Shown: positions 2,889 to 43,218 of the stretch, piece after piece
Layout of the letters: every line of letters begins with the position of its first letter
Position numbering within the stretch: position 1 is the stretch's first letter
Virus record (IMG/VR): IMGVR_UViG_3300012920_000069
Location: 1 to 46,587 of that record
Length of the DNA: 46,587 nt
Strand: one strand, 5' to 3'
From: a virus
Notes under the pieces: model-generated
Database searches by the model: none
What the model was told of the DNA's origin: nothing
Seen by the model: the letters and a program-made list of their open reading frames with translations, nothing else
Translations under genes and position numbers: made by a program

Positions 2889-2927
2889 ATGTTATAGTTA
2901 TATTTTATCCAATTTATTAGGCAATTT

Positions 2928-3578
2928 TTAAATGATGATTTCCAGATCATCATTTAAATTTGGTAATTCAACTATTTGATTGTCACCAATATCAAGTACA
3001 GTTAATTTTTTCAAATTACCAACTGATTCTGGTAACTCAGTTAAATGATTATTATTAATATATAATTCTTCCAAATTTTTCAAATTACCAACTGAATTAG
3101 GCAAATTATTTAAATCATTGAAATTGATATCAAGTACAGTTAATTTTTTCAAATTACCAACTGATTCTGGTAACTCAGTTAAATGATTATAGCTGACATA
3201 TAATTCTTCCAAATTTTTCAAATTACCAACTGATTCTGGTAACTCAGTTAAATGATTATTATTAATATATAGCCTAGTTAATTTTTTCAAATTACCAACT
3301 GATTCTGGTAACTCAGTTAAATTTAATTCATCTAACCATAAGCTTTCTAATCCCATTAAATAATCCATTTCCACACCATATTTTAAACAATAATATCCAT
3401 AATCTCTAATTTTCTTGGATAATTTTTTACTATAATTATTATTTGGAAATTGGGATTTAATTAACATAAATGCCAATTCCATACTATCATCATCACCACT
3501 ATTTAGCATGTCTATTATACCATCTTCGGTATAAGATTCATTGATGAAGGAACCAAAATTTTTAATATAATTATTCAT
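2928..3578 (-). CDS. LRR protein with capsid-targeting-like leader, 216 aa
   Basis: It has the same leader as the next gene downstream (MNNYIKNFGSFINESYTEDG) and the same pre-LRR block (DDDSMELAFMLIKSQFPNNN, YCLKYGVEMDYLMGL). Five to six repeats of LPESVGNLKKL type follow. It starts one base after the stop of the tape-measure-like gene (3580), so co-transcription and coupling with a virion gene are likely. Leader and block are nearly identical to the 1947-2888 gene while the repeats differ (PESV versus PDSI), suggesting the LRR part diversifies while the N-terminus is kept. Confidence 0.92.
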   Translation of the reverse strand: MNNYIKNFGSFINESYTEDGIIDMLNSGDDDSMELAFMLIKSQFPNNNYSKKLSKKIRDYGYYCLKYGVEMDYLMGLESLWLDELNLTELPESVGNLKKLTRLYINNNHLTELPESVGNLKNLEELYVSYNHLTELPESVGNLKKLTVLDINFNDLNNLPNSVGNLKNLEELYINNNHLTELPESVGNLKKLTVLDIGDNQIVELPNLNDDLEIII

Positions 3579-3579
3579 A

Positions 3580-6603: not shown

Positions 6604-6652
6604 GTCACAATGATAAATAATTAAATTTAATTATTTATCATTGTGACATGGC
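6599..6652. promoter_or_regulatory. 54-bp perfect palindrome spanning tape-measure-like start
   Basis: The arm begins GCCATGTCACAATGATAAAT, and 27 bp per side are exactly complementary with no spacer. The minus-strand ATG of the tape-measure-like gene (6601-6603) sits in the left arm and a mirror ATG (6648) in the right. Each strand carries GATAAATA (minus 6632-6639, plus 6612-6619), one base from the T4 late octamer. It may be a two-way promoter or operator, or the outcome of an inverted duplication of the gene's 5' end. Confidence 0.75.
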
Positions 6653-6725
6653 AAATTATATGTTGAAGATGACATATTGGATTTGATAGAAAATGACATG
6701 ACAAAATATGGAACTTGATATAAAG
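6648..6725 (+). pseudogene. Degraded 5' remnant of an LRR gene
   Basis: From the mirrored ATG at 6648 the DNA follows the start of the LRR gene at 7619: ATGGCAAxTTAT, then TGAAGATG.CATAxTGGATTTG and weaker similarity (AATATxGAAxTxG) to about 6725. The FINES-coding segment is deleted and the frame ends after 13 codons (TGA at 6684-6686). It looks like a decayed family copy or a recombination scar. The stretch from there to 6825 holds no other gene that I can see, only AT-rich leader sequence for the gene at 6826. Confidence 0.6.
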
Positions 6726-6825
6726 ATTCATAGTATTATATAGAGTAATATGCAAATCACCAGATTTTATTAAAAAATTTAAAAAGATCGTATTGATACG
6801 ATATTAATTATCAACAATAAAATTT

Positions 6826-7596
6826 ATGAAAAGATTAAGTAAATTTAGCGAAATCACCATCAATGATGCACGTCGTACATATACCTACGATGAAGTGATG
6901 AAGGTACTATATACTGGTAATAAAGGTAGATTAAATGCGGTATTTAAACATATTAAATCAACTTATCCAAATGGAGATTATCCAAATGAAATGAGAGAAC
7001 GCATGATAAGATATCCTTATCATTGTTTATTAAATTACTTAGAACTAGATCACTATAAAAAGCAAACCAAAATATATATGTTTTCTCAAAACATATCTGA
7101 ATTACCAGAAGCATTGGGAGAATTAACACGCCTAAAATCATTATCGTTAGCAGATAATAGATTAACTAAATTATCTGGTAAAATATTATCTAAATTAAAA
7201 AATTTAAGATCACTTGATTTAAGTAGAAATCAATTAACTAATATACCAACAGGGTTATCCAAGTTAAATAGATTGGAAACATTAAATATATCTATTAATA
7301 AATTCAATAAACTACCCAATTCAATATTTAAGATAGAGTCTATTGAAACACTATATGCTGATGAAAACAAAATAAAAGAAATACCAGATGAAATTAATCA
7401 GTTTCTATTTTTAGAAAATTTACATGTAAATGATAATATGATAACACATATATCAGAATCCATTAATGATATATCGAGCTTAAAAATGTTAATGGTGAAA
7501 AGAAATCCCATAATTAACGATTTTCCACCCCATTTAGATAGATTTAGATTTTTTAATGGTTTAGATCAAAATCCCCGTCGAAGCGATACATATTAA
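6826..7596 (+). CDS. Divergent LRR protein, 256 aa
   Basis: It has the family layout: an N-terminal segment (KFSEITINDARRTYTYDEV), a pre-LRR block with the conserved YPYHCLLNYLELDHYK stretch (about residues 63-80), then about six LRRs (LPEALGELTRL, IPTGLSKLNRL, LPNSIFKIESI). The leader deviates from its paralogs: INDA stands where the others have INES, so a prohead-protease-type I-x-E site is absent or altered. It is the first gene of the long plus-strand cassette and is followed after 22 bases by another LRR gene. Confidence 0.88.
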   Translation: MKRLSKFSEITINDARRTYTYDEVMKVLYTGNKGRLNAVFKHIKSTYPNGDYPNEMRERMIRYPYHCLLNYLELDHYKKQTKIYMFSQNISELPEALGELTRLKSLSLADNRLTKLSGKILSKLKNLRSLDLSRNQLTNIPTGLSKLNRLETLNISINKFNKLPNSIFKIESIETLYADENKIKEIPDEINQFLFLENLHVNDNMITHISESINDISSLKMLMVKRNPIINDFPPHLDRFRFFNGLDQNPRRSDTY

Positions 7597-7618
7597 TTCT
7601 AATTCTAAAAATTGTAGT

Positions 7619-8215
7619 ATGGCAAGTTATATTAAAAATTTTAGTTCCTTTATTAATGAATCTTATACTGAAGATGGCATACTGGATTTGATAAAAAATG
7701 GGGGTAGTTCCAATATAGAATTGGGGTTTATGTTAATCAAATCCCAATTATCAAATAAATCATTTAGCAGTGATTTGATTAATATTATCAAGAAATATCC
7801 CAGATATTGCATAAAATATGATGTGGGAGTAAAACATATGTCAGATTTAAAAGAGTTGTGGATAAACAATATCCAATTAACTAGTTTACCTAGTTCTATT
7901 GGTAATTTGAAAAATTTGATGTATTTAAATGCTTCGGATAATCAGTTGATTAATTTACCTAGTTCTATTGGTAAACTAACTAAACTAAAAAAACTATATT
8001 TACATCATAATCAATTAGTTAGTTTACCAATAGAACTAGGTAAATTAAAAAATCTGACAGAATTGCATATTCATAATAATCAACTAACTGAATTACCTAG
8101 TTCTATTGGTAAACTAAAAAATCTGACAGAATTATGGATGAATAATAATCAAATGTCTAAACCACCAGAATTTTTAAAAAAATTGAAAAAATTGAAAAAA
8201 ATAATATATCTATAA
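7619..8215 (+). CDS. LRR protein with capsid-targeting-like leader, 198 aa
   Basis: The leader MASYIKNFSSFINES is followed by the family block (EDGILDLIKNGG..., YCIKYDVGVKHMSDL) and four to five LRRs of LPSSIGKLKNL type. The C-terminus is strongly basic (KKLKKLKKIIYL). It ends 1 base before the ATG of the next LRR gene, so the two are probably translated as a pair. The 6648 remnant matches this gene's first codons best. Confidence 0.9.
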   Translation: MASYIKNFSSFINESYTEDGILDLIKNGGSSNIELGFMLIKSQLSNKSFSSDLINIIKKYPRYCIKYDVGVKHMSDLKELWINNIQLTSLPSSIGNLKNLMYLNASDNQLINLPSSIGKLTKLKKLYLHHNQLVSLPIELGKLKNLTELHIHNNQLTELPSSIGKLKNLTELWMNNNQMSKPPEFLKKLKKLKKIIYL

Positions 8216-8216
8216 T

Positions 8217-8951
8217 ATGGAAAGTTATATTAAAAATTTCAGTTCCTTTATTAATGAATCTTATACTGAAGATGGTATATTAGATTTAATAAATAGTGGT
8301 GATAATGCCAATATGGATCTGGGATTTATGCTAATCAAATCCCAATTCCCAGATGATAACTATGGTGAAGATTTATTAAATTCAATCAGAAATAATCCTT
8401 ATTATTGCTTAAAGCACTATGTTGATATGGATTATATGAGATCACTAAATGGGCTATATCTTGATGGTAATGAAATAGACGAATTACCAGATAGCATTGG
8501 TGAATTGGTGAATTTGGAAGATCTATATATAAACAACAATAACTTATCTGAAATACCGGATAGCATAGGTAATTTAACAAAATTAGATACATTAAATATT
8601 AGTGATAATCAATTATCTGAATTACCGGATAGCATATCTAAATTGAAAAAATTAAATATGCTATATATTAGTGATAATCAATTATCTGAATTACCAGATA
8701 GTATATTTAAATTAAAAAATCTTAAAGGACTATACGCTGCTACTAATTCGATATCTGAAATACCAAATGATATAGGTAATTTGAAAAATTTGGATACCAT
8801 ATTTCTCAGTAATAATTACATAAAAGAATTACCAAAGTCCATGACTAAGTTGAGAAAATTAAAAAAACTCATGTTGAATTACAATTATATAGGTCAATTG
8901 CCTGAATTTATGGAACATATGGGCATCGAATACCAAATGGTTAGTAGGTAG
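8217..8951 (+). CDS. LRR protein with capsid-targeting-like leader, 244 aa
   Basis: The leader MESYIKNFSSFINES is almost identical to the gene upstream, followed by the acidic block (ILDLINSGDNANMDLGFMLI) and YCLKHYVDMDYMRSL. About seven LRRs follow (LPDSIGELVNL, IPDSIGNLTKL, LPDSISKLKKL and so on), ending in a short polar tail. Leader identity with five other copies alongside varied repeats is what one expects if the N-terminus has a fixed job, such as virion packaging, and the LRR face is variable. Confidence 0.92.
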   Translation: MESYIKNFSSFINESYTEDGILDLINSGDNANMDLGFMLIKSQFPDDNYGEDLLNSIRNNPYYCLKHYVDMDYMRSLNGLYLDGNEIDELPDSIGELVNLEDLYINNNNLSEIPDSIGNLTKLDTLNISDNQLSELPDSISKLKKLNMLYISDNQLSELPDSIFKLKNLKGLYAATNSISEIPNDIGNLKNLDTIFLSNNYIKELPKSMTKLRKLKKLMLNYNYIGQLPEFMEHMGIEYQMVSR

Positions 8952-9006
8952 TAATTCGGTAACCATTTCTATTATGTTAATTTAAAAATATTAAAAACTA
9001 ATAGAA

Positions 9007-9156
9007 ATGGAAAAATTTAGTCTTAAAAGAACCAAGCAATGTGGTAAATGTCCCTGGAAAGTATCAACTAACCCACATGACATACCTAATGGATATTCAT
9101 TGGAGAAGCACAAAAAATTTATTGATACATTACCTAAAAATAATAACATAGAATAA
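9007..9156 (+). CDS. Small Cys-motif protein, 49 aa (DUF6283-like)
   Basis: An ATG at 9007 opens a 49-residue frame with CGKCPWKVSTNPHDIPNGYS followed by LEKHKKFIDTL. The C-x2-C-P-W/R...DIPN...H pattern is typical of the short phage/bacterial family DUF6283 (recalled from memory, not searched). The CxxC and a downstream His could bind metal. Its stop overlaps the ATG of the next LRR gene (TAATG), which strongly supports it being translated. Confidence 0.7.
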   Translation: MEKFSLKRTKQCGKCPWKVSTNPHDIPNGYSLEKHKKFIDTLPKNNNIE

Positions 9157-9806
9157 TGGAAAAACACATTAAAAATTTTAATCAATTTATTAATGAATCT
9201 GATGAAACGGATAGTTTGTTGGAGTTATTTAACAGTAAAGACAAATCAAAAATCACGAATGGATTTAAAATGATGCTAGATAATAATCTTGATGTTGGCA
9301 CAATCAGAAAACTAAATTTATCATATTCTGAATTGGATGAATTACCAGACACCATAGATAGATTTACCAATCTAGAAGAATTGAGATTAGTTGATAATAA
9401 TCTTAAAAAGTTACCAGATTCAATTGGTAAGCTCAAAAATTTAAAAAAATTATATATATCAGCCAATAGTCTTAAAGAGTTACCCCGTAATATATATGAT
9501 CTTAAAGATCTGGTAGTATTGGAAATATCATCCAATAATTTCGGGGAATTACCAGATTCAATTGGTAAGCTCAAAAATCTAAAAGAACTGGATGCATCAT
9601 CTAATAAATTATCATCTATACCAGATTCAATTGGTAATCTAATAAATTTAGATAAATTGAATTTTAGTAACAATGATATTAAAGTACTACCAGATTCAAT
9701 TGGTAAGCTCAAAAATCTAAAAGAACTGGATATTACTAGAAATCAAGTAAAAGAGTTACCAAAAACCATGGGTGATATGGGTGATGAATTTATACTATAT
9801 CAATAA
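9156..9806 (+). CDS. LRR protein with capsid-targeting-like leader, 216 aa
   Basis: The leader MEKHIKNFNQFINES is followed by a shorter pre-LRR block than in other copies (LLELFNSKDKSKITNGFKMM), with no YHCLxxxxE segment, and about seven LRRs (LPDSIGKLKNLKEL occurs three times, almost identical in DNA). Start and upstream stop overlap (TAATG). The missing middle of the pre-LRR block suggests an internal deletion relative to its paralogs while the leader was retained. Confidence 0.9.
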   Translation: MEKHIKNFNQFINESDETDSLLELFNSKDKSKITNGFKMMLDNNLDVGTIRKLNLSYSELDELPDTIDRFTNLEELRLVDNNLKKLPDSIGKLKNLKKLYISANSLKELPRNIYDLKDLVVLEISSNNFGELPDSIGKLKNLKELDASSNKLSSIPDSIGNLINLDKLNFSNNDIKVLPDSIGKLKNLKELDITRNQVKELPKTMGDMGDEFILYQ

Positions 9807-13848: not shown

Positions 13849-14616
13849 ATGAAATATATAAAATTATTTGCTGAATATATAAATGAATCCGATGAGTCAA
13901 AAATAGTGGGTATGCTAAAAACTGGTGATGACATTAACGTAGAACTAGCATTTAATCTATTATCATCGCAAAATATACAAATTAAGGATACCAGTATAAT
14001 ACGAAAATATCCCATACATTGTTTAAAACATGGATTAGAATTAGAATGGTTATACAATTTAAAATCTATAAATGCTTCTAATAATGGTATATCAGAATTA
14101 CCAGAATCAATAGGTTCGTTGAAAAACCTAGAGGAATTAAACCTACATGGTAATATGATACAAGAATTACCAGAATCAATAGGTTCATTGGATAGTTTGA
14201 ATGATCTTTATCTATCATCCAACAGACTAGTTAAATTACCAAGAACCATGGGTAACCTTGGTAATTTAACTAGTCTGTATTTATCAAATAATCAACTATC
14301 AAAACTGCCACCTTCTATAAATAAATTATCAAAATTAGAACAATTATATTTATCAAATAATCAACTATCAAAACTGCCTGATTTAAGTAATCTCAAATCA
14401 CTTAAATCACTTTCATTATCCAATAACCATTTTAAGGTAATACCAAAACAATTGATTGGATCTGGTATTACCAGTCTAAATATGTCAGATAATCCAATCA
14501 AATTTATAAATGACTATGTATCTAATTTAAATTTGGATGAAATAACCATAAGCACAGGAATTAATTCTAAAAGACTAATGGATCTGATAGATGGAATAAA
14601 AATTTATTATGACTAA
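13849..14616 (+). CDS. LRR protein with capsid-targeting-like leader, 255 aa
   Basis: The shortened leader MKYIKLFAEYINES is followed by the conserved block (SKIVGMLKTGDDINVELAFN, YPIHCLKHGLELEWLYNL), then about six LRRs (LPESIGSLKNL, LPRTMGNLGNL, LPPSINKLSKL) and a divergent C-terminal cap. The I-N-E-S site is retained although the leader is two residues shorter, arguing for selection on that site. It shares a palindromic promoter region with the hub-like gene and overlaps the gp4-like gene by 8 bases. Confidence 0.9.
   Translation: MKYIKLFAEYINESDESKIVGMLKTGDDINVELAFNLLSSQNIQIKDTSIIRKYPIHCLKHGLELEWLYNLKSINASNNGISELPESIGSLKNLEELNLHGNMIQELPESIGSLDSLNDLYLSSNRLVKLPRTMGNLGNLTSLYLSNNQLSKLPPSINKLSKLEQLYLSNNQLSKLPDLSNLKSLKSLSLSNNHFKVIPKQLIGSGITSLNMSDNPIKFINDYVSNLNLDEITISTGINSKRLMDLIDGIKIYYD
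14222..14278. repeat. Perfect 22-bp inverted repeat in LRR gene
   Basis: The arm ACAGACTAGTTAAATTACCA(AG) at 14222-14243 is exactly complementary to 14257-14278, with a 13-nt loop. It lies within the coding sequence of the third LRR of the 255-aa gene. Confidence 0.9.
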
Positions 14617-16231: not shown

Positions 16232-16881
16232 TCTTTGCCATTCATTTTGTTGATTATTACAGATAATTCTGTTAGATTTTTCTTTAGATTTTTGACCATG
16301 GTATCCATATTATTAATAGAAGACTCTGTATCTAAGACCTTTTCATGACCATTCATAGCCATTAATATACCCTTAATTTCAGATATTTCCCTGGAATTTT
16401 TTTCTATACCGTGGTTAATTTCTCTTCTAATGGTATCCAACATACCATATATCTGCTTACCCTGGTTTAATTCTTCTATTATTAGATCATTTATTTCTTT
16501 TATAGATGTACCATACATCTCTTTAAAGAAATCACCCAATTCCACATATTTATCAAATATTCTAGATGTTTGATTTCTTTGAAATTCTGAATTAGTTTCT
16601 AATTCATGCTTCAATAGTGTTTCGTCTCTATTTATATTATTTTCATTATTCCTCTTATCTATATCCAATTTTTCTTTTTGAGCCTGTGCCCTCATTTCTT
16701 GATTGGCTTTTTCAGATTCTGCCAGTCTTTCATTTTTTCCCTTTATATAATTTGCTATCCATCCACTACCACCAAGTAATAATGTTATTAATGCATATAC
16801 TATATTGCTAGTGGTGATAACGGTTCCACCAGTAGATGCAGATTTTGTGGTATCTGCTAATAATATTATTAATTGTTCCAT
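16228..16881 (-). CDS. Membrane-anchored coiled-coil protein, 217 aa
   Basis: Residues 26-45 form one hydrophobic segment (SNIVYALITLLLGGSGWIAN). A long charged helical region follows (about residues 48-125, with AESEKANQEMRAQAQKEKLD), then further coiled-coil stretches to the end (MDTMVKNLKKNLTELSVIIN). This is an anchored rod, with topology undetermined. The start lies 13 bases inside the end of the CheY-like gene, so it is coupled to the two-component pair and may be a membrane partner of that signalling unit. A phage spanin or holin-associated protein is another possibility. Confidence 0.72.
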   Translation of the reverse strand: MEQLIILLADTTKSASTGGTVITTSNIVYALITLLLGGSGWIANYIKGKNERLAESEKANQEMRAQAQKEKLDIDKRNNENNINRDETLLKHELETNSEFQRNQTSRIFDKYVELGDFFKEMYGTSIKEINDLIIEELNQGKQIYGMLDTIRREINHGIEKNSREISEIKGILMAMNGHEKVLDTESSINNMDTMVKNLKKNLTELSVIINKMNGKD

Positions 16882-17288
16882 CTTAAATCTATGAATTTAA
16901 AAATCTTATTGACAAAAACCGACACTAAAGCCTTTATACTATCCTTGTATTCTACTATATTGGTTGGTTTTGTCATATATGCTGATGCACCATACTTTTT
17001 ACTATCGGATATATCTTCATCTGATGAAGATGTAGTCATCATTATACATGTAATACGAATATCCATATTACCAAGTTCCATTAACATTTCAATACCACTC
17101 ATTTTTGGCATATTAATATCCACCAAACACATATCTATACCCACATCTTTTATTATTGATATACCCTGTTCGCCATCACTAGCCTCATATATATCAAATG
17201 TACCTGGATAATGTCGTTCTATGGTATCTCTCATTAGGAATGTATCTTCAAACCTATCATCTACTATGAGTAATTTAATTTTGCTCAT
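16869..17288 (-). CDS. CheY-like response-regulator receiver, 139 aa
   Basis: A single receiver domain with no output domain. It contains the acidic pair D10-D11 (LLIVDD), the phospho-acceptor D57 (LVDINMP), T85/T86 (MMTTS) and K107 (TKP), so the active site is complete. I chose the ATG at 17288 (MSKIKLLIVDD); an upstream ATG at 17330 would prepend 14 residues encoded inside the kinase gene. The start overlaps the kinase stop by 14 bases, indicating coupled translation and a cognate pair. With no DNA-binding domain it probably acts by protein contact, perhaps with the membrane coiled-coil protein encoded next. Confidence 0.92.
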   Translation of the reverse strand: MSKIKLLIVDDRFEDTFLMRDTIERHYPGTFDIYEASDGEQGISIIKDVGIDMCLVDINMPKMSGIEMLMELGNMDIRITCIMMTTSSSDEDISDSKKYGASAYMTKPTNIVEYKDSIKALVSVFVNKIFKFIDLRWNN

Positions 17289-18675
17289 CTTTTGGTAATG
17301 TAAAAAATATTTTGAATCCATTTTCATCATTAGTGAAATCTAATTCACCACCGTGGTCTTTAACTATTTTTTCACAAATAGCTAGTCCTATGCCAGTTCC
17401 CTCTACATCTCTATTTAATCTACCAAACAGTTTAAATGCATCCTGTTTATATTTGGTATTTATGCCAACCCCATTATCTTTAACATATAGAATGATTTTT
17501 TTGCCCACGTTTTCATATCCATGGGATATCACTAAATCATTTTGACCGCTGTATTTGATTGAATTAATAAAAAGATTTTGATATATTCTTTTTATTAATT
17601 CAAAATCAGCATATACATTTGGGTATATCCCTGTTTCTTTGGTTATTTTTATAGTATTATTTTTGTCTTTAAATTGTTTTATATGAGAAGATATTACATG
17701 TCTGGCTTCGTGTATAGCCATAATAGGGTTAAATGATGTTTTTTCGGTTATGTTGATTCTGGAATAAGTTAAAGATCCATCTATGATATTAGACATTTCA
17801 TGGGAGCAATCATGTATCATCATACACATTTTCTTTACCATGGCATTATTAGTATTATCACTTTCTATTTCCACTATCACTCTATCTGATATACCCATCA
17901 AATTTGATAGTGGACTCTTCATATCATGAGCTGTAATATATGCATATTTTTCTAACATATCATTTTTAGCCTCAAGATCTTTTTTTCTGTTTTCATGAGT
18001 AGTCCAGTCAACTATACCAAGTATACAACTATCTATATTATTTTGATAAGTATGATTTCCATATACCAATAGATACTTATATGAATTACCTATACTCAGT
18101 TTAATTCTTTTTTCAAAAGAAATCTTCTTATATATGGAATCAGTAATCTTCTTATATAAATCATCATATTCTGGCTCCTCCATCATATTTTGTATGATAT
18201 TCACCACATCATGATTAACACCATCTATCCCCAATAATGACTTAAAATAATTGTTGATATAGGATACTTTATTATTACTTTGTATCAAACATATACCAAT
18301 AGGCAATACTTCATTTAGTTTTTTCCATTTATTGTTGCTATTTTCTATTACCCTGTTTATTTCTTCATATGTTGTAACTCTTCCTAACAATACTATACCA
18401 TCATTATGACCGTATATATCAAATGAGTAATTTTTATCATCTATAACTTCTGGTATATTTTTGTGAGAATTGTTAGTTCCATGGAGTTCATTAAATATAA
18501 TTCTCCATCTATTATTATTGAAATGTTTTACAGTCTTCCAATTATCCCCGACAGATATTTTTGTATTAAATGATTCATTAATAAAATTCATAAATGATTC
18601 ATTTATGAATTTTACTCTATAATTGTCATCTAATGATAAAAAATATTCATCTATATGATTAAGTTCATTCATCAT
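17275..18675 (-). CDS. PAS-type sensor histidine kinase, 466 aa
   Basis: Order: a PAS-like region (about residues 8-105), a second PAS-like region (about 118-225), a DHp helix with H-box AYITAHDMKSPLSNL (phospho-acceptor H250), then a catalytic domain with N-box (NLFINSIKYSG, about 367-377), G1 (DNGVGI, 400-405) and G2 (GTGIGLA, 426-432). All motifs needed for autophosphorylation and phosphotransfer are present. No transmembrane segment was seen, so it is likely cytoplasmic. The H-box wording resembles Bacteroidota kinases, suggesting acquisition from a host (inference). It overlaps the upstream gene by 11 bases and the receiver gene downstream by 14. Histidine kinases are rare in phage genomes. 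Confidence 0.93.
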   Translation of the reverse strand: MMNELNHIDEYFLSLDDNYRVKFINESFMNFINESFNTKISVGDNWKTVKHFNNNRWRIIFNELHGTNNSHKNIPEVIDDKNYSFDIYGHNDGIVLLGRVTTYEEINRVIENSNNKWKKLNEVLPIGICLIQSNNKVSYINNYFKSLLGIDGVNHDVVNIIQNMMEEPEYDDLYKKITDSIYKKISFEKRIKLSIGNSYKYLLVYGNHTYQNNIDSCILGIVDWTTHENRKKDLEAKNDMLEKYAYITAHDMKSPLSNLMGISDRVIVEIESDNTNNAMVKKMCMMIHDCSHEMSNIIDGSLTYSRINITEKTSFNPIMAIHEARHVISSHIKQFKDKNNTIKITKETGIYPNVYADFELIKRIYQNLFINSIKYSGQNDLVISHGYENVGKKIILYVKDNGVGINTKYKQDAFKLFGRLNRDVEGTGIGLAICEKIVKDHGGELDFTNDENGFKIFFTLPKDEQN

Positions 18676-23604: not shown

Positions 23605-23790
23605 ATGAAAATAAATAGGTATATTTTACAGTTTTTGTTTATTAGATTGGTAATGAACAAATCAATGGATGGTAAACTACTATATTATTCAATCATGTAC
23701 TGGGTCAAACCTATGAGTGGGTATAGAGGAAAACCATATAGATACGCATGTGGAAATGAACCTAAATATTTAAAAATATGGAATATATAA
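23605..23790 (+). CDS. Small basic protein, 61 aa
   Basis: A hydrophobic/aromatic N-terminus (KINRYILQFLFIRLVMNKS) is followed by a basic Tyr/Gly-rich part (YWVKPMSGYRGKPYRYACG). No family recognised. Its last codons overlap the ATG of the LRR gene at 23778 by 13 bases, and it starts 9 bases after the previous stop, which supports it as a real coupled gene. Confidence 0.6.
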   Translation: MKINRYILQFLFIRLVMNKSMDGKLLYYSIMYWVKPMSGYRGKPYRYACGNEPKYLKIWNI

Positions 23791-24449
23791 AAAGTTTTGG
23801 TAATTTTATATTAGAAGAATATCCATATGATGATGACATCATATCAATGTTGGCATCAGATCACCCAAATAATATAGAATTAGGATTTCAATTGGTCAAA
23901 GGGTTGATTAAAGATGGTGTAGAATATGGCGATGGGCTAAGAGATGAACTAAGAAAACACATTGGATATTGCTTAATACATGATATAGAAATTGATTATA
24001 TATCTACATTATCTGTGTGGAAGGATAAGAATAATGATAATATAATCATACCAGAAGAGATCTATAAAATGAAAAAATTATCAGTCATATCATTGTATAA
24101 TTGCTATATAAATGGTTTACCAAATAATATAGATAAGGTAAAATTGGATACTATATCATTAATTGATTGTAATTTATCATCCATACCCGATAGTATCGCT
24201 AATATTAAAAGTCTTAATTATTTGAATTTAGGCATAAATAAAATAAAAGAATTACCTGATAAATTTAATAAATTGATTAACTTGAGAAGTTTTTCAGCCT
24301 ATATGAACAATATTTCTGGATTACCTAATGGGTTTCATGATATGAAGAAGCTATCATATATTAATTTAGAGGACAATAGATTGAATAATGACCAATTAAT
24401 TAAATTATATGATAGCTTCGATCATTTAGGTGATGATTTGGTTTTATAA
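23778..24449 (+). CDS. Divergent LRR protein with targeting-like leader, 223 aa
   Basis: The leader MEYIKSFGNFILEEYP keeps the F..FI-x-E pattern although INES has become ILEE. The conserved block follows (DIISMLASDHPNNIELGFQL, GYCLIHDIEIDYISTL). The LRRs are degenerate and mixed in type (LPNNIDKVKLDTI, IPDSIANIKSLNYL, LPDKFNKLINL). The change from INE to ILE still satisfies an I/L-x-E protease site. A perfect 14-bp inverted repeat (24347-24360 with 24406-24419) lies near the 3' end. Confidence 0.85.
   Translation: MEYIKSFGNFILEEYPYDDDIISMLASDHPNNIELGFQLVKGLIKDGVEYGDGLRDELRKHIGYCLIHDIEIDYISTLSVWKDKNNDNIIIPEEIYKMKKLSVISLYNCYINGLPNNIDKVKLDTISLIDCNLSSIPDSIANIKSLNYLNLGINKIKELPDKFNKLINLRSFSAYMNNISGLPNGFHDMKKLSYINLEDNRLNNDQLIKLYDSFDHLGDDLVL
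24347..24419. repeat. Perfect 14-bp inverted repeat at the 3' end of the LRR gene
   Basis: GAAGCTATCATATA (24347-24360) is exactly complementary to TATATGATAGCTTC (24406-24419), and weaker pairing continues inward. Part of it may serve as a terminator, since the frame ends 30 bases later. Confidence 0.75.
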
Positions 24450-33126: not shown

Positions 33127-33843
33127 TTACTTCCAATCATCTAATGAAAATTCATTTTCTATTACTAGGGTATCGCTAAAATAGTTTAGTCTAGTTATTG
33201 TTTCTAAATCATCTATTGACATAGAATAATTAAATATATTGTTATTGTTATTGTTACCATTATCAATTAAAAATGCTATGGATTTTTGGTATAATGGTGA
33301 ATGATAGATTTTGTAAAATTTGTCAGGTATATTTTTATTATCTTTATAGATTACTCCAGTAATCACTATTAAGAATACCATATTGTTTCTGGCATATCGC
33401 GCAAAGTGGTTTTCTAGTTTTCTCCATAAACCTCTATTAAATCTATAATATTGAGGAACAGTATTAGTATAAATCATAGTTTTATTGGCATAATTATTAT
33501 CCCAAGTAAAATCACCGAATGGAACCAGATGACCTCTATCATACAACATAGAATCGGCATTCAAATTTTTATAGAAACTATATCCTCTTTGGTATTTTTT
33601 ATCAATCTTTTTATCATATGTAAAATTTTTCCTATTACACTTAACAGAATTTGTATGATATAATATGTGTATTGACCAATCTGGTAACTTTCTTACTGTG
33701 TCAAACGAAATTGCAAAATCACCATGGTCTATCACTATACTTGTATTAGTGGGATAATACTGTGATAAATTCACATTTTGGGAATATGTTGTTTGAATAA
33801 TAAAAACCCAAACAACAACTAGTATATTTCTCATATTTCTCAT
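33127..33843 (-). CDS. Secreted DNA/RNA non-specific endonuclease, 238 aa
   Basis: The N-terminal signal peptide (RNILVVVWVFIIQTTYSQN, cleavage near residue 21) is followed by an Endonuclease_NS/NUC1 fold: the catalytic DRGH at residues 102-105 (H105 as general base), then ANKTMIYTNTVPQ (N127) and RFNRGLWRKLENH (N136, metal ligand type). Enzymes of this family cleave DNA and RNA non-specifically using one divalent metal. Export out of the cytoplasm is likely, perhaps to protect the producer from competing DNA or to scavenge nucleotides (inference). The start may be M1 (33843) or M4 (33834). It ends 1 base before the 33125 start. Confidence 0.88.
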   Translation of the reverse strand: MRNMRNILVVVWVFIIQTTYSQNVNLSQYYPTNTSIVIDHGDFAISFDTVRKLPDWSIHILYHTNSVKCNRKNFTYDKKIDKKYQRGYSFYKNLNADSMLYDRGHLVPFGDFTWDNNYANKTMIYTNTVPQYYRFNRGLWRKLENHFARYARNNMVFLIVITGVIYKDNKNIPDKFYKIYHSPLYQKSIAFLIDNGNNNNNNIFNYSMSIDDLETITRLNYFSDTLVIENEFSLDDWK

Positions 33844-33948: not shown

Positions 33949-36900
33949 TTATGAAAATCCGTTAGAAGATACTGATCCTGAACTTCTTCTAAGGGTAAAT
34001 CTATTGAAGAATTTCCTAATTATGCCATTAAATGATACGTAAACATCAACTAATGCAGAATCAGCAGCAATAACTTCATCGGTATTATTACTACTGTCAA
34101 ATACTACCTGATATTCTGACAATACACCAACAGTATTTACTAGTGGATCTAGTAATGTATTTATCAAATTAACTACCTCAGTTCTAGTAGTATCATTATT
34201 GTATTCAAAAGCATATGGGAATAGTATTTGCTCTATTCTCAATTGGATATTGATTAAAGTATCTCTGACATAGATATTATTTAATACACTCCTGAATTTT
34301 TGATATGCGGTTGCTTCACCAAATATGATAATACTACCATTCCTACTTATCAATGGAACCATACCTTTTTCTTCGAAATATCCCCTTTCATCATCATCAA
34401 ATTCAGCAGCTAATCTTTTTATATCATTGCCTACTATGGTACCTCTTCTAACACCACCAACTGATGCATAGGGTGTACCATTTGCGTGTTTTTGAGCAAA
34501 TTGGACTGCTACATGACCTGATGGGGGTACTTCTATTTCATCACCACCATCATCAACTATTATTCCTGGAAGAAAGAACCCAGAGTGACTAGCACCATTT
34601 TGTTCTTCCGGTAAAGTAAATAAAAAATCTGGATTTTCTAGTAAATTACCACCATCTCTAATATATTTTGCATTTAACGTAGGTAATGGATCTACGGGAG
34701 TTGGAGTGTCAGTAAATCTTGGATCATCAGAATCTAGAAATTCATCCATTGATGGAGAATTCAATATAGCTATGGAAGTCTGCTTTCTTAATGCTAATCT
34801 GGATAGGTAATCTTTAGATTGTGTTTCAAGACCGTGGAAAAATGTGTCCACAATATATCTGAATGATATATTTTTGTTAAGCAGACCCTTATAAATATTC
34901 GTATTCCATATTACTTCATAGATCTGTTTCATTCTATCATTAGTACCATTTGGCATATGGGATTCTTTTATGGTAAATCCTGGTAAATAATGCAAATTAT
35001 ACAGATCATAGAATGATTCTATTGGTTTATATCTTTCTATTTGATGATCACCAGATATAGTATTAAATCTTTTTATGTTATTTGCAGTAGTAATTTCTAT
35101 ATGAGTTACTGATGGGCTACCTATTTTTTTGATAGATACTATCCTAGTCAATATGTCTTCATCACCAGCAGTACCAACCAAATAATCTCCTAAAACTACA
35201 TCATCAAAAAAACTTGCATCTATTTGGACAACCGTGTCTGATATAAAATTTGCATCAAACCTTTGATTTATAGATCCACTTAAACTTATAAAATTTACAA
35301 TATTAGGATCATTAACTAAGTATCCATCAGAATCATAAGTGGTGCCAAAAGCGAACGCATCACCAGCAGTTATTGGTATAGATAAATCAGTATCAAGGAA
35401 TAAATTTACTTGTAATATATCTCTTGATAAATTATCTTTGGTTTCTATTATTTGAATATAGTGATCAGTAGTACCATTATTGATTCTATCACCATTGGTA
35501 ATTTTACCGTTTTTGTAGTCAGTATAAAATTGAGTACCTGTATCAGCAGCATAATATGTACTGGTACCATCAATTATAAATTTGTCAAATTCTGTCAAAT
35601 ATGTCAAAACTGTTCCAGTAGTATCTATATCAACAAATGATCCAGAATTCAAAGTTTCATTTTCTTTAAATATATTGCTTAATTCAAAGATTAGTTGGGA
35701 TGTGGTTTTAGTTACTCTGGTAACTTCCAATGCTGGTGTTGATATTGTTACACCAGCATTAGTTCCTTCAGTGGTTGTAATGCCGTTAAAATATGTACCA
35801 AGTTCTACCACATTAGATGCATTGATAAAATCTGGGTTACTGTTTGTTACAGTAACTCTAACATAAGTTGGGAAATATTCTATGATCACATTACCATCTA
35901 CCGCTATTGTATCACTATTATTGCTGGTTTTTTGTGAATAACTAAAATTTTCAGTTATGTCTTTTTTATATGATAAAAAGTCTGTATCAGAAACCCCATC
36001 ATTTAATAAACTATGACCAACCAAATCAAGTAAATATGTATTAGTATTAGTTTCGTGCTTATCAAGTTCTTTTAGATCTATTGAACAAAATAATCCAAAC
36101 CTCCTAACATCATTATTGATAATAGTTTCTATATAAAGATTGCTACCATCTTTATCTTTAAAATTTGGTATTAATGATCCAGTTACTATATTGATTACAT
36201 TAATTTCAGGCAAATTAATAAACTCATCTAGTTTATCAACAATTAATCCGTTGGGGGTAAAATATGCACCCAATACAGGATCAGTGGATAGATTTTGATA
36301 ATTTTCTTCACTGTAGTTGCCTTCTATGATTATCACATCTATCATATAATCTTTAACCAGATCATATTCTCTGATGAAACATGGTACATTCTCATCTTCG
36401 GTTTGATACCATTCGGAAACTGGTATATCATAACCTGAAATGTTACTTTTTCTTAATAATATAGTATGTGATATACCACCTATATTAACAAAATTAAGTA
36501 TTCTACCATTATCAACTGCACTCCTGGTTGCTAATAAATGTTTTCTATCTGGAAACCAGAATCTTTCCTTGTTAAAATATGATGCATAAAGTTTATCTCT
36601 GTTAATGCCATTTAAGTTAATGGGATCTGTAGAAAAACTTTTATATTGTGCGGTGTCTGCGTTTTGTGTGGGGGTACCAGCATTATCAACTTCATTATTT
36701 ACATTAAGCAAATTGAGTGCTAATACCGGACTATTTGATAGGGAGGTTTCTAAAATTCTATTGAAAAAACTACCTTTCCTTTCCATGGATCTATTAATAC
36801 CACCAAATATTTCTCTGGATGTTCTAAGATCCTGAGTTTGTATTAACACAGGGGTATTGAATACAGAGGATTGATTAGTAAACCCAACCACCAATTTAAC

Positions 36901-37005
36901 AATAGAGCTACCACTAATTATTGGCAATACGGTAGTATCCTCATATATGAAGTAAACACCAGATGCCTTAAATTCATCGAAATTTATGGTTTTTAAGGTA
37001 GTCAT
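33949..37005 (-). CDS. Tail sheath protein, 1018 aa
   Basis: It begins with the typical sheath N-terminus (FDEFKASGVYFIYEDTT, then IVKLVVGFTNQSSVFNTPVL) and ends with the polymerisation domain (about residues 885-1018) including RSVLNNIYVRDTLINIQLRI, VNLINTLLDPLVN and a terminal strand segment (IIRKFFNRFTLRRSSGS). The middle is long and beta-rich with many Thr/Asn, larger than T4 gp18 (about 660 aa), suggesting surface-exposed insert domains. The sheath contracts to drive the tube into the host, so the phage is a myovirus. The ATG is at 37003-37005. Confidence 0.88.
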   Translation of the reverse strand: MTTLKTINFDEFKASGVYFIYEDTTVLPIISGSSIVKLVVGFTNQSSVFNTPVLIQTQDLRTSREIFGGINRSMERKGSFFNRILETSLSNSPVLALNLLNVNNEVDNAGTPTQNADTAQYKSFSTDPINLNGINRDKLYASYFNKERFWFPDRKHLLATRSAVDNGRILNFVNIGGISHTILLRKSNISGYDIPVSEWYQTEDENVPCFIREYDLVKDYMIDVIIIEGNYSEENYQNLSTDPVLGAYFTPNGLIVDKLDEFINLPEINVINIVTGSLIPNFKDKDGSNLYIETIINNDVRRFGLFCSIDLKELDKHETNTNTYLLDLVGHSLLNDGVSDTDFLSYKKDITENFSYSQKTSNNSDTIAVDGNVIIEYFPTYVRVTVTNSNPDFINASNVVELGTYFNGITTTEGTNAGVTISTPALEVTRVTKTTSQLIFELSNIFKENETLNSGSFVDIDTTGTVLTYLTEFDKFIIDGTSTYYAADTGTQFYTDYKNGKITNGDRINNGTTDHYIQIIETKDNLSRDILQVNLFLDTDLSIPITAGDAFAFGTTYDSDGYLVNDPNIVNFISLSGSINQRFDANFISDTVVQIDASFFDDVVLGDYLVGTAGDEDILTRIVSIKKIGSPSVTHIEITTANNIKRFNTISGDHQIERYKPIESFYDLYNLHYLPGFTIKESHMPNGTNDRMKQIYEVIWNTNIYKGLLNKNISFRYIVDTFFHGLETQSKDYLSRLALRKQTSIAILNSPSMDEFLDSDDPRFTDTPTPVDPLPTLNAKYIRDGGNLLENPDFLFTLPEEQNGASHSGFFLPGIIVDDGGDEIEVPPSGHVAVQFAQKHANGTPYASVGGVRRGTIVGNDIKRLAAEFDDDERGYFEEKGMVPLISRNGSIIIFGEATAYQKFRSVLNNIYVRDTLINIQLRIEQILFPYAFEYNNDTTRTEVVNLINTLLDPLVNTVGVLSEYQVVFDSSNNTDEVIAADSALVDVYVSFNGIIRKFFNRFTLRRSSGSVSSNGFS

Positions 37006-37685: not shown

Positions 37686-38213
37686 ATGGAGTACGGATAT
37701 TTAATAATGAAATTACACTATCCTTTTTGGGATAATTTAACCAATAAAATAGAAAAAGATCATCTACATAATAACGGTATTGAGAGTAGTCCACACGTAA
37801 CAATATTGGGTAATATAATCCACAATGATATAAATTTAGACGAGCTTACTAACAGCTGTAAAAAATACTTATCAAATATAGATGATATATCGGTAAATGG
37901 TATAAATATATTTGATAATGAAAATTTCAACGTATTAAAGTTTTCATTATCAAGTGATAAACTATCGTTAGCTCATGAACATTTCTCATCAAATTATAAT
38001 AATGAAGATAAGTTTGATAAATATAAACCACACGCAACAATAGCATACCTCCAAAAACATACACCATATGATGATTATTTAAATATTGTTATTGATGGTA
38101 CACATATGCCAAAACCAGAGTACATTTTCTATAGTGATCCTAATAGAAATATTAAAGTATTGGTTGATTTTAATTATTCGGAGAATGATAGAATTGAGAT
38201 GATATATGAATAA
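37686..38213 (+). CDS. 2H phosphoesterase (2'-5' ligase/Acb1-like), 175 aa
   Basis: It carries two HxT motifs 79 residues apart: SPHVTILG (H37, T39) and KPHATIAYL (H116, T118), each on a strand, the hallmark of the 2H phosphoesterase superfamily (LigT, CPDase, T4 57B/Acb1). These enzymes hydrolyse cyclic phosphodiesters. The T4 member Acb1 degrades cyclic nucleotide signals of CBASS immunity and is about 150 aa. Whether this is an anti-CBASS enzyme or an RNA-repair type cannot be decided from sequence. It lies just before the ncRNA-like stretch. Confidence 0.8.
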   Translation: MEYGYLIMKLHYPFWDNLTNKIEKDHLHNNGIESSPHVTILGNIIHNDINLDELTNSCKKYLSNIDDISVNGINIFDNENFNVLKFSLSSDKLSLAHEHFSSNYNNEDKFDKYKPHATIAYLQKHTPYDDYLNIVIDGTHMPKPEYIFYSDPNRNIKVLVDFNYSENDRIEMIYE

Positions 38214-38214
38214 A

Positions 38215-38720
38215 AGTTGACCTCCAATCACTTAAGTGGGGAGGTCAACTAAACAGGCACTAATTGTGCAAAATCCAGACTTATACAACCATACAACTGG
38301 GAGCTAGTCTGCATGCCCCACTTCGATTAACAATATGGCAAACTTGGGGCAAATTTAACATTGGTCATTGCCAATTGACCCATGTAATCATGGGATTTGA
38401 AAATAATCAAGATTTTCATTTGCTTCATTACTCATCGAGATTATCCACCAAAGATATTCACCTTGGATTTTTGATTTTACTATTAAAATCAATGCCTGGG
38501 ATTCCAGCTATATAATCCGCAGGTCTTTTTCACCAAACTATGTTTATAAAAGCCAAACAGGGCTTATGGTATTGACACCAGTAGTTAAAATTTTAGTTAT
38601 CCATCGTTCATGGGGTTGGTTAAACCAAATCGATAAGCCATCGATCGCTGATTTTCAGCTTAGTTTCAAATCAATAATCAAAATTACTATACAATCTTAA
38701 ATCGGGGAGGTTACACTATG
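38215..38720 (+). ncRNA. Candidate large structured RNA
   Basis: About 500 nt have no convincing reading frame and visibly more G+C than the flanks, with many hairpins: AGTTGACCTCC/GGAGGTCAACT (38215-38250, with inner CAC/GTG), GCAC/GTGC (38257-38269), GCCCCA/TGGGGC (38315-38350), GGTCA/TGACC and CCCATG/CATGGG (38363-38394), TTGATTTT/AAAATCAA (38471-38492), AAGCC/GGCTT (38550-38565), GCTGA/TCAGC (38647-38659). A 3' GGAGGTTA (38706-38713) could pair with the 5' TGACCTCC. This recalls large phage RNAs such as ROOL and GOLLD, but no family assignment is possible by eye. The strand is inferred from flanking plus-strand genes. Confidence 0.5.
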
Positions 38721-38883
38721 CTATTTCATTCTGAATAAATTTTTAATTAAATAATGGGGACAACAACTATGTGATGCCTTTTTCACTTATTTTATATATT
38801 GATATTCAAAGTGGTTATATACAATTTATTAATTTTTTAAGATAATATGAATTGGATATATAAGTCAAATATTACATAATATT

Positions 38884-39285
38884 ATGATTAAATTATTTAT
38901 ATACATTATAGAATTATTTATATACATTATAGAATTATTTAAAAATGGTGGTGAAATATATGAAATACCGAAAGGAACATATTGTGAATCAGATTATGGC
39001 TTTGATCCGGTAACTCATGTTCATAAAACCAAATCTTTAAAATGTACGGAAATAACAATATCAAATGGGATCAAATTAATTGGATCTGATGATCACATAG
39101 TATTTAATAAAAAATATGAGGAAATAAAATTAAAGAATATAAAAATAGGTGATTATGTATATACAAAACATGGAAAAAAAGAAGTGATAAAAAAAAGAAG
39201 ATTATCCAGGAAAAGAAGATTATTTGATATAACTATTGATAATAAGTCACATTCTTATTATACCAACACTATATTATCACACAAT
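38884..39285 (+). other. C-terminal split-intein fragment (IntC, 134 aa)
   Basis: The ORF starts within an intein. Residues 53-92 (KCTEITISNGIKLIGSDDHI ... KNIKIGDYV) fit block B, with SDDH in the T/S-x-x-H position. Residues 113-134 (FDITIDNKSHSYYTNTILSHN) fit blocks F and G, ending HN before Ser135. Block A with its catalytic Cys/Ser is absent, and no upstream frame supplies it. The known AceL-TerL split intein has just this arrangement (very short IntN, long IntC of 104 aa) in the same gene. No homing-endonuclease domain is present. Splicing would need an IntN partner made elsewhere. Confidence 0.78.
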
Positions 39286-40791
39286 TCAATCATTATTGGA
39301 ATATTTCTAGTGTGGTATGCAATAACCCACCAAGATAGGAATATAATAGTAATTAGTCAAAATGATGATAAGGTGGAGGAATTAATGGATAAAATAGATG
39401 TTATAATAAGTAATCTACCATTCTATTTAAAACCTGGAATAGTAAAATATAATATACACAAAAAATTTTTCGATAATGGATGTAAATTAATAGCTCAAAC
39501 TACCACTGGTACATCTGGTGCCAGTTATACAGCACATGTAGTTTACATAGATGAATTTGCATTAATCCACCCAAATTTAATAAACAAATTCTATACCACA
39601 GTATATCCCACAATAGCGGAATCAGAAACGGGTAAATTCATTATTAGCTCTACTCCCAGAGGGTTGAATAAATTTTACACATTGTGGATAAATTCTATAT
39701 ATGGTAGAAATGAATACAACCCGATACGAACAGATTACTTTGAAGTTCCTGGGAGAGATGAAGAATGGAAACAAAAACAAATAGAACAACTTGGTGGATC
39801 AATCGAAGATTTTAATCAAGAGTATGGATGTCAATTTGTAGCTGGTAAAGAATTAATGTTTAAACCCTATATCCTAAAATGGATAAAAAAGCGAGAAACA
39901 GAATATAAATTTGTGGATATGGATGTATTTTCACAATTAAACAAATTGATAACAGACCCATTAAAAGGTAACGAAGAAACCATGGTGACTGAAAACCATC
40001 TTAACGGTGCTCTGGTATGGCATCCTTCCTTTGATACAAATAGTATCAAAGGAAGGAAATATATTCTCAGCATAGATCTAGGAAATGGTGGTGGTGGTGA
40101 TTATTCAGTAGTTCAATTTATGGGAATATATCCAATGTCCAAAAAATCCATAGAAAAAATAACAATAGTAAAAGATATAAGGTCATTTTTTAAAGTAATA
40201 CAAATAGGAGTACTTAGAAGTAACAGAATGAGCATACCAGTATTCGCATACATTTTATATTTTTTAATCAAAAATCTATTTATACAAGATGATATTAAGA
40301 TTGTCTTAGAAATGAATTATAAGGGTGAGTATTTCTTTAATCAAATAAATTCAATAGATGGTAATAATAATACTCTGGATAGTGATTATATTTTTGCCAA
40401 ATCCAAGCATAGTAAAAATGCAAAAACAGAGCATATAGGCATTAATAACACCAAAAGATTCAAAAACCTATCATCAGATTCAGTATCAGATAAAACAGAA
40501 GATGGTATATTGGAATTTTATGAAAAAATTACCGTTAATGAAGCATTATCGCTATTAAAACCGGAAAATGGGACATTTAAAAGTCAATCTGGGAATGATG
40601 ATCATATAGTGTCATTAATAAATATTGGTAATTTTTTGGAATCTACTGAATATACAGAGATGTTGGAAGATTTATTAATGAAAATGCCCGATAGTTTCCT
40701 AGAATTAATAAACTACAATGATATAATTAATGATGAATATAATGATGAGGAAATATCGGGACAATATGATGATGACGAGTACGATATATAA
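38884..40791 (+). CDS. terL: Terminase large subunit, C-part (IntC + extein)
   Basis: After the intein fragment, Ser135-IIIGIFLVWYA corresponds to the residues just after the Walker A GK of T4 gp17, so the junction splits the P-loop. Then come Walker B (VVYIDE, 219-224), the coupling motif STPRG (256-260), and a nuclease domain with D398 (SIDLGNGGGG), E476 (VLEMNYKGEY) and D572/D573 (NDDHIVSL). These are all the expected catalytic acids for packaging ATPase plus headful nuclease. The N-terminal third (Walker A) is missing. It would be restored by trans-splicing; if not, this is a broken gene. The C-terminus is very acidic. A perfect 14-bp hairpin lies inside (40024-40056). Confidence 0.88.
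   Translation: MIKLFIYIIELFIYIIELFKNGGEIYEIPKGTYCESDYGFDPVTHVHKTKSLKCTEITISNGIKLIGSDDHIVFNKKYEEIKLKNIKIGDYVYTKHGKKEVIKKRRLSRKRRLFDITIDNKSHSYYTNTILSHNSIIIGIFLVWYAITHQDRNIIVISQNDDKVEELMDKIDVIISNLPFYLKPGIVKYNIHKKFFDNGCKLIAQTTTGTSGASYTAHVVYIDEFALIHPNLINKFYTTVYPTIAESETGKFIISSTPRGLNKFYTLWINSIYGRNEYNPIRTDYFEVPGRDEEWKQKQIEQLGGSIEDFNQEYGCQFVAGKELMFKPYILKWIKKRETEYKFVDMDVFSQLNKLITDPLKGNEETMVTENHLNGALVWHPSFDTNSIKGRKYILSIDLGNGGGGDYSVVQFMGIYPMSKKSIEKITIVKDIRSFFKVIQIGVLRSNRMSIPVFAYILYFLIKNLFIQDDIKIVLEMNYKGEYFFNQINSIDGNNNTLDSDYIFAKSKHSKNAKTEHIGINNTKRFKNLSSDSVSDKTEDGILEFYEKITVNEALSLLKPENGTFKSQSGNDDHIVSLINIGNFLESTEYTEMLEDLLMKMPDSFLELINYNDIINDEYNDEEISGQYDDDEYDI
38891..38941 (+). repeat. 21-bp in-frame tandem duplication at IntC start
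   Basis: Two exact copies of a 21-bp unit (AATTATTTATATACATTATA+G, 38891-38911 and 38912-38932) and a partial third encode (LFIYIIE)2-LF. The 'IELF' that follows resembles the 'IEELF' element after block A of TerL inteins, so the extra copies seem to be an extension of the IntC N-terminus. Confidence 0.8.
40024..40056. repeat. Perfect 14-bp inverted repeat in terL
   Basis: CCTTCCTTTGATAC (40024-40037) and GTATCAAAGGAAGG (40043-40056) enclose AAATA, in coding sequence between the ATPase and nuclease domains. Confidence 0.9.
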
Positions 40792-42199: not shown

Positions 42200-42554
42200 T
42201 TATATATTTTTTAAGTTCAGTATATTCAAAATCATTACCAACCAAATAGCTATCTATAATGCCTATATCACTATATATTATGATATATGTAAGCTTACCA
42301 GTGGATTTAAAAGATTCATCATCCTCTATTAGAATCAGTTTATCCATATCTACTTTATCTGAATTTCTGATTCTACCATATATCAGATCAAAGAATCTGC
42401 ATACTTCATCATTAGACTCTATATCTACACATAGTCCAGAACCATAGAAATCTGATATGTCACAATGATTTTCTAAATCTGATAAATTTAGAAAATCATT
42501 GGAAGAATATTCTAGTGTATTATTCATTTTCGTCAAATTCGTCAAATTTTTCAA
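42186..42554 (-). CDS. Hypothetical protein, 122 aa
   Basis: I do not recognise this protein. It is an acidic alpha/beta sequence (SDFYGSGLCVDIESNDEVCR, TGKLTYIIIYSDIGIIDSYL). It starts in the last codons of the upstream gene (35-base overlap from 42520), unusually long for this genome, so an internal ATG may be the true start. A perfect 16-bp hairpin (42463-42478 with 42486-42501) lies near the start. Confidence 0.6.
   Translation of the reverse strand: MKNLTNLTKMNNTLEYSSNDFLNLSDLENHCDISDFYGSGLCVDIESNDEVCRFFDLIYGRIRNSDKVDMDKLILIEDDESFKSTGKLTYIIIYSDIGIIDSYLVGNDFEYTELKKYINDIR
42463..42501. repeat. Perfect 16-bp inverted repeat in coding sequence
   Basis: CAATGATTTTCTAAAT (42463-42478) and ATTTAGAAAATCATTG (42486-42501) enclose 7 nt, in the 5' part of the 122-aa gene. 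Confidence 0.9.
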
Positions 42555-43218
42555 TGGTTATCTTATCTTCCACATGTTCACCAATATCATTACCAGATAA
42601 TCTTGGATTTTTTGATTCTTTCATATACATTTGGTGATTGGATTCTATTATGGCATTGTCTATTTTACCCATCATTTCACCTAAGCTATATGCTTGATTA
42701 GAAGATTCCTCTATATCCTCTTCCACCCCCAATATCTGATTATGGTCTCTTAATTTAATTAAAAATTCTTCTATTTTTTTAAATAATTCTGACTGAAACT
42801 TAACTATATCCAGTGCTAATCTTTGCATACCAGTTAATACTTCCACTTTCCTGGGAGTTATATCTTCATTAAAAGTTATATCTTGGTAAATTTTATAAAT
42901 TGTATCATTGGCTATATCAAGTTGGAACATCAAGTTGGCTAAATTCATAGATCTAGACTCAATAACAATTTCCATGTAATCATTGTCATCTAATTTATCT
43001 AAATTCAAAAAAAATTTCACAGATTCTTCTACAAATTTTCTAGCCTTAACCTTATTATCAGATTTAATTTTTTCAAATTTCGATTTAAATTGATTTAACT
43101 GATCTTCGGTATATTTAGGAGTTTCTTCAAGCATCTTTTCAAAAGATGCCTTGTTTTTGATATCTATTTCATCTGATATTTTTTTGCTTATTTCATCTAA
43201 TTTAGTATTTTTAATCAT
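42520..43218 (-). CDS. Helical/coiled-coil protein, 232 aa
   Basis: The sequence is almost entirely helical and charged, with heptad-like stretches (KLDEISKKISDEIDIKNKAS, LNQFKSKFEKIKSDNKVKAR, RLALDIVKFQSELFKKIEEF). No membrane segment. It is probably an oligomeric structural or scaffolding-type protein; there is no family I recognise. The start overlaps the upstream gene's stop by 8 bases. A short perfect hairpin (GCATCTTTT/AAAAGATGC, 43131-43149) lies near the start. Confidence 0.65.
   Translation of the reverse strand: MIKNTKLDEISKKISDEIDIKNKASFEKMLEETPKYTEDQLNQFKSKFEKIKSDNKVKARKFVEESVKFFLNLDKLDDNDYMEIVIESRSMNLANLMFQLDIANDTIYKIYQDITFNEDITPRKVEVLTGMQRLALDIVKFQSELFKKIEEFLIKLRDHNQILGVEEDIEESSNQAYSLGEMMGKIDNAIIESNHQMYMKESKNPRLSGNDIGEHVEDKITIEKFDEFDENE

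What the first reader, a model, noticed from the sequence alone, without database searches (positions are those of the whole stretch)
38884..40791. Terminase interrupted at the Walker A motif by an apparent atypical split intein
The ORF begins inside an intein after block A, holds blocks B, F and G, ends HN, and continues with the Ser of the GK(S/T) motif of terL. There is no N-terminal TerL or block A upstream; a 2H gene and a non-coding stretch lie there. AceL-TerL is a known split intein with a very short IntN and a long IntC in the same gene. If the IntN half is encoded elsewhere, packaging would depend on trans-splicing.
Basis: partly seen in the sequence, partly recalled or inferred. Interest (0 to 1): 0.85.

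Follow-up and report, generated by a model that had tools for sequence, protein, structure and literature searches.

The report
Phage terminase split by atypical intein
A large phage encodes only the second half of its DNA-packaging motor in this stretch, fused to half of a protein-splicing element; relatives carry the matching first half as a separate gene, so the motor is probably made by joining two separately made proteins, and here the two genes lie unusually far apart.

Summary
Confirmed and extended. ORF 38884-40791 (+) is an intact C-half of a T4-type terminase (TerL). It begins with a 134-aa intein C-part and joins TerL at the +1 Ser of Walker A (GK|S, equivalent to T4 gp17 K166|T167). 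No N-half, IntN or homing endonuclease is on the 46.6-kb contig, although a profile that recovers every known N-half at E<=1e-15 was used. The contig is a fragment, so the N-half may lie outside it. IntN begins with Cys (44-72 aa), IntC ends HN (about 135-150 aa), and the break lies between two predicted helices. In 57 of 59 the N-half sits within 3 kb upstream on the same strand, often with a Vsr-like endonuclease between. In a 735-kb phage it is 12.4 kb away; in one contig it is on the opposite strand. The window's sister (39-45% identical) has its N-half 1.9 kb upstream. Two large phage genomes carry no intact TerL. Best reading: packaging depends on protein trans-splicing, with the halves more than 38.8 kb apart on one side or more than 5.8 kb on the other. 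Splicing itself is untested.

The parts
38884..39285 (+). Intein C-part (IntC, 134 aa), ending ...ILSHN; begins after block A. Block B His71, block F Asp115 and His123, block G His133-Asn134.
   Evidence: family alignment
38893..38934 (+). Exact 21-bp tandem duplication (one heptad, LFIYIIE x2) inside the predicted N-terminal helix of IntC (model residues 2-21).
   Evidence: sequence; helix
39286..40791 (+). TerL C-half: from the Ser of Walker A (+1) through the rest of the ATPase and the nuclease domain; Walker B VVYIDE, SSTP motif, nuclease motifs IDLGNGG, VLEMN and DD572-573 present.
42520..43218 (-). Putative small terminase subunit, homologous to the gene next to TerL or its N-half in relatives; opposite strand to TerL-C.
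   Evidence: profile from relatives, E 1.7e-7
33949..37005 (-). Tail sheath. In sister contig L262 the sheath follows TerL-C on the SAME strand; here the strands are opposite, so TerL-C has been inverted relative to it.
37686..38213 (+). 2H phosphoesterase (2'-5' RNA ligase-like); sits where relatives carry the N-half or the endonuclease.
38210..38765 (-). Non-coding stretch, possible structured RNA (minus strand ends in a hairpin plus U-rich run). It holds no TerL-N, IntN or endonuclease remnant.

Best explanation
This is the C-half of a split terminase made by protein trans-splicing. The phage encodes TerL as two proteins: TerL-N ending at the Lys of Walker A plus IntN, and IntC plus TerL-C, the gene seen here. 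The halves would assemble through the Hint fold and probably through a hydrophobic helix at each broken end. Cys1 and Ser+1 would then exchange the thioester, Asn134 would cyclise, and the joined extein would rebuild an intact G-K-S Walker A, so only spliced TerL can bind ATP and package DNA. The N-half of this phage most likely lies in the unsequenced part of its genome, after a rearrangement that also inverted TerL-C. Shown: the C-half, its predicted fold, its catalytic residues and the N-halves of relatives. Inferred: an N-half in this phage, and splicing.
For: Intact ORF with intein and terminase residues conserved. 59 distinct split loci with matching N-halves, typically ending (A/S)RQxGK|C. 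Sister L262, 43% over 477 columns, SH-aLRT 99, has its N-half 1.9 kb upstream. LR756501 (735 kb): halves 12.4 kb apart with genes on both strands between, and no intact TerL found by phrog_2; LR756500: none either. L208: halves on opposite strands, so only joining of two separate products can work. Contiguous versions of the same intein exist; one is modelled at mean pLDDT 90.7 with the broken loop between helices 37-49 and 54-68. Codon use matches the rest of the contig.
Against: No N-half on 46.6 kb, whereas 57 of 59 relatives have it within 3 kb. The contig is one metagenomic fragment, so loss of the N-half or a chimeric join cannot be excluded. Splicing was not tested.
Confidence: 0.84

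Rival explanations
1. Relic: the N-half was lost and packaging relies on another, intact TerL elsewhere in the genome.
For: No N-half and no endonuclease on the contig. The window branch is somewhat longer than its sister's (0.95 against 0.70).
Against: 635-aa ORF without stops; every catalytic residue checked in both domains is kept. The two large phages checked have no second intact TerL.
Confidence: 0.08
2. Assembly artefact: a chimeric join or a lost segment at the non-coding stretch removed the N-half from its usual place upstream.
For: Unusual neighbourhood: 2H gene plus about 670 bp of non-coding DNA where relatives have the N-half or endonuclease.
Against: Codon use of TerL-C matches genes on both sides. 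The tail sheath next door is the neighbour seen in sister L262, and a small-terminase homologue lies on the other side, as expected for one packaging locus.
Confidence: 0.06
3. The halves are joined at the RNA level, for example by an intron using the non-coding stretch, instead of by the intein.
For: The stretch may be structured (z -2.9 to -3.5); terL introns exist in other phages (ICP1, PMC10448857).
Against: No Rfam intron match. The ORF carries a complete intein C-part ending HN|S. Relatives keep Cys-led IntN tails that would be pointless with RNA splicing.
Confidence: 0.02

Closest known systems
AceL-TerL / GOS-TerL / Cat atypically split inteins (PMC11766414; PDB 6dsl)
   Same: Split TerL of phage origin; break near the N-terminus of the Hint domain; short IntN, long IntC. 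CatC aligns from its residue 3 to family position 30, so the split point is the same.
   Different: IntN 44-72 aa instead of 25-37, with an extra helix on each half. Insertion is at Walker A GK|S/T with Cys1 and Ser/Thr+1; GOS-TerL is Ser1/Cys+1 (PMC10189870). That AceL/GOS sit at another TerL site is from memory.
Fractured genes (Dassa et al. 2009; paper not held here, known by citation and from memory)
   Same: Split intein halves as two genes with a Vsr-like or DUF559-type endonuclease gene between them: true of many relatives.
   Different: In the window there is no endonuclease and the halves are not adjacent; in L208 they are on opposite strands.
Mycobacteriophage TerL1-a P-loop inteins (PMC5050341)
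   Different: Those were described as contiguous inteins; here the intein is split.
Cyanobacterial DnaE split intein (from general knowledge)
   Same: Halves of an essential enzyme encoded at distant loci and joined by trans-splicing.
   Different: Host replicase with the canonical split point; here a phage packaging motor with an atypical one.

Membership tests
Inteins (Hint fold, class 1) | Hint fold | tested here: met
   AlphaFold2 model of the window IntC; 48 PDB matches at E<=1e-3, the best being inteins
Inteins (Hint fold, class 1) | Block B His, block F Asp/His, block G His-Asn, +1 Ser/Thr/Cys | tested here: met
   H71, D115, H123, H133-N134, S135; block B Thr is Ser68 here and mostly Ala in the family
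Inteins (Hint fold, class 1) | Block A with nucleophile at position 1 | tested here: inconclusive
   Not on this contig; Cys1 in nearly all relatives' N-halves, including sister L262
Split inteins | Two separate genes whose products together make one intein | tested here: inconclusive
   Only the C gene is on this contig; both genes in 59 relatives
Split inteins | Protein trans-splicing activity | not testable with these tools
   Needs co-expression
AceL/GOS-TerL atypically split group | Break near the N-end of the Hint domain (short IntN, long IntC) | tested here: met
   CatC residue 3 aligns to family position 30; IntC 134 aa
AceL/GOS-TerL atypically split group | IntN of about 25-37 aa without added helix | tested here: not met
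   IntN 44-72 aa with conserved helical tail in relatives
Fractured genes | Homing endonuclease gene between the halves | tested here: not met
   None in the window; present in many relatives
T4-type TerL (Terminase_6) | ATPase and nuclease motifs | tested here: met
   N-terminal ATPase part absent from the contig

The most novel reading that the evidence does not exclude
Once broken between its two helices, the intein frees the two terminase genes to drift, invert and come under separate promoters. The window phage would be an extreme case in which packaging is an AND gate: only cells expressing two distant, separately controlled genes make a motor able to bind ATP.
Probability: 0.2. Interest if true: 0.8.

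Novelty: new variant of a known kind. Interest (0 to 1): 0.62.

Why it matters
It documents a broad family of split inteins at the ATP-binding loop of the packaging motor of many phages, including very large ones. It shows stages from contiguous, to split with an endonuclease, to split without one, to separated or inverted halves. It predicts that an essential motor is inactive until two proteins are joined. It also supplies dozens of new atypical split-intein pairs, with helices at the break that may help docking, for protein engineering. Gene finders may report such phages as lacking a complete TerL, a key marker gene.

Tried and rejected
Searched the contig for the N-half with phrog_2, tblastn of the LR756500 N-half, N-half profiles at maximum sensitivity and an IntN profile: nothing. 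Looked for an RNA family in the non-coding stretch: no Rfam match above threshold; blastn found only weak A+T-rich hits. Looked for strain-level relatives that might carry the missing piece: none in IMG/VR or in GTDB genomes. Orphan N-halves in other contigs: none seen among the hits. L230 looked C-only but has a partial TerL-N ORF (a probable frameshifted N-half) about 1.2 kb upstream. A first cis-intein alignment that included IntN rows misaligned and was dropped.

Full report
OBSERVATION. The ORF at 38884-40791 (+) is 635 aa with no internal stop. Its first 134 residues are an intein C-part: sequence matches to gp41-1, PolB16 and CatC inteins, a sub-threshold Pfam Intein_splicing match, and a predicted Hint fold whose best PDB matches are VidaL, gp41-1 and Cat. 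The rest is T4-type TerL: Terminase_6N E 2e-13, phrog_2 E 1e-24, and T4 gp17 E 1e-20. The gp17 alignment starts at query residue 3 = chain residue 169 of 3ezk, which puts the junction between gp17 K166 and T167, inside Walker A (residue names of gp17 from general knowledge). All intein residues expected in IntC and the main terminase motifs are present.

ABSENCE OF THE N-HALF. The window is a whole IMG/VR record of 46,587 bases, apparently a fragment of a larger genome. phrog_2 finds only the C-half. Profiles of TerL N-halves at maximum sensitivity find nothing better than E 0.1-0.2. In leave-one-out tests (rows over 60% identical removed) every one of 29 known N-halves was found at E 1e-15 or better in the same search space, and the sister's N-half at 2e-38. 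An IntN profile and an endonuclease profile also find nothing. So the N-half is not on this contig; it may be elsewhere in the genome.

THE FAMILY. tblastn against phage records gave LR756500 (462 kb) and LR756501/LR756503 (735 kb) as the best matches that include the intein. In LR756500, TerL-N-IntN, an endonuclease (MTES_1575/DUF559-like) and IntC-TerL-C are adjacent. In LR756501 the N-half (623868-624413, minus) lies 12.4 kb from the C-half (609229-611508, minus), with genes on both strands between them. phrog_2 finds no intact TerL in either record; the only further long hits are TerL-like ATPase paralogues in which the Walker A Lys is missing. Profile searches of IMG/VR gave 59 distinct split loci, 5 contiguous ones and 55 intein-less TerLs in the classified set. 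IntN starts with Cys in the tabulated split loci, is 44-72 aa there, and ends in a hydrophobic helix-like tail (for example LTFLEKIKY.LWKLY). IntC starts with a helix (MxKxxLKxIIxxLIxLIExIEYRN) and ends HN, rarely SN/SQ/LN, followed by Thr or Ser. In 57 of 59 split loci the N-half is within 2.83 kb upstream on the same strand; where the gap is about 1 kb it often holds an endonuclease gene of one family. Of 14 C-only loci, 12 start within 1.1 kb of a contig end; L230 has a partial, probably frameshifted N-half about 1.2 kb upstream; the last is the window.

GEOMETRY. Three cases break the rule. LR756501: 12.4 kb apart. L208: C-half on plus, N-half on minus 3.2 kb downstream next to the small-terminase homologue. 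The window: none in 38.8 kb upstream or 5.8 kb downstream. The sister of the window is L262/G001 (SH-aLRT 99), found through the tail sheath: N-half SRQSGK|CVAWDTT..., 1.9 kb gap, then IntC-TerL-C, then the sheath, all on one strand. In the window the sheath is also the neighbour but on the opposite strand to TerL-C, and the putative small terminase gene is on the minus strand too. The simplest inference is an inversion or relocation of the C-half gene that left the N-half elsewhere.

MECHANISM. Shown: predicted fold, residues and partner genes in relatives. Inferred: trans-splicing. The contiguous intein in L199 gives a confident model (mean pLDDT 90.7) in which helices 37-49 and 54-68 flank the point where split versions are broken. 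CatC, the engineered consensus of the AceL/GOS atypical inteins, starts at family position 30: same split point, but without the helix. A docking role for the two helices is therefore a reasonable but untested proposal. The window's IntC helix contains an exact one-heptad (21-bp) duplication. Because the break is at GK|S, neither half alone can form a working Walker A, so packaging should need splicing.

EVOLUTION. On a 52-row TerL-C tree the split state needs 8 changes and intein presence 5, fewer than in shuffles; split, contiguous and intein-less rows are interleaved. That fits repeated gain or loss (homing) on a partly vertical background. The tree is a quick one.

LITERATURE. P-loop inteins between Lys and Thr of TerL are known in mycobacteriophages as contiguous inteins (PMC5050341). 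AceL-TerL (IntN 25 aa), GOS-TerL (IntN 37 aa) and the Cat consensus are known atypically split inteins (PMC11766414); GOS-TerL is Ser1/Cys+1 (PMC10189870). Fractured genes are described in Dassa et al. 2009, not held here. In the searches made I found no report of this Walker A split family or of separated or inverted terminase halves in phages; the library holds only open-licence papers, so novelty is provisional.

VERDICT. What remains is to find this phage's own N-half and to show splicing.

Noticed in passing
window 38210-38765 (-): Non-coding stretch with above-chance folding (z -2.9 on minus, -3.5 on plus) and a minus-strand hairpin followed by a U-rich run; no Rfam match. Possible phage non-coding RNA.
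   Followed up: partly
window 16869-18675 (-): Histidine kinase (HATPase_c E 9e-17) next to a response regulator (E 9e-20): a two-component pair in a phage contig.
   Followed up: partly
window 33127-33843 (-): Endonuclease_NS family nuclease (E 4e-35) with an apparent signal peptide.
   Followed up: partly
window 1-9806, 13849-14616, 23778-24449: About nine leucine-rich-repeat paralogues, several sharing an N-terminus like NFxSFINESYTEDGI; a similar LRR gene lies near the TerL-N gene in LR756500 (L016 4448-5218).
   Followed up: no
L037 (LR756501 699857-701038, -) and L016 9829-10644: TerL-like ATPase-domain paralogues whose Walker A lacks Lys (RQMGI-T/S); in LR756500 it directly follows the split TerL.
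   Followed up: no
window 37686-38213 (+): 2H phosphoesterase beside the split terminase, with a sub-threshold match to the anti-CBASS protein Acb1 (E 1.8e-5).
   Followed up: no
L012 708-3794; L010 1488-2705: Other split or truncated TerL inteins at different sites (GASIN|C... with a GIY-YIG-like gene between the halves in L012; QEFGN|C... in L010), showing several independent split sites in TerL.
   Followed up: no
L227, L252, L261: Inteins of the same IntC family in proteins other than TerL, apparently also at a P-loop (HN|STI or HN|TTI).
   Followed up: no
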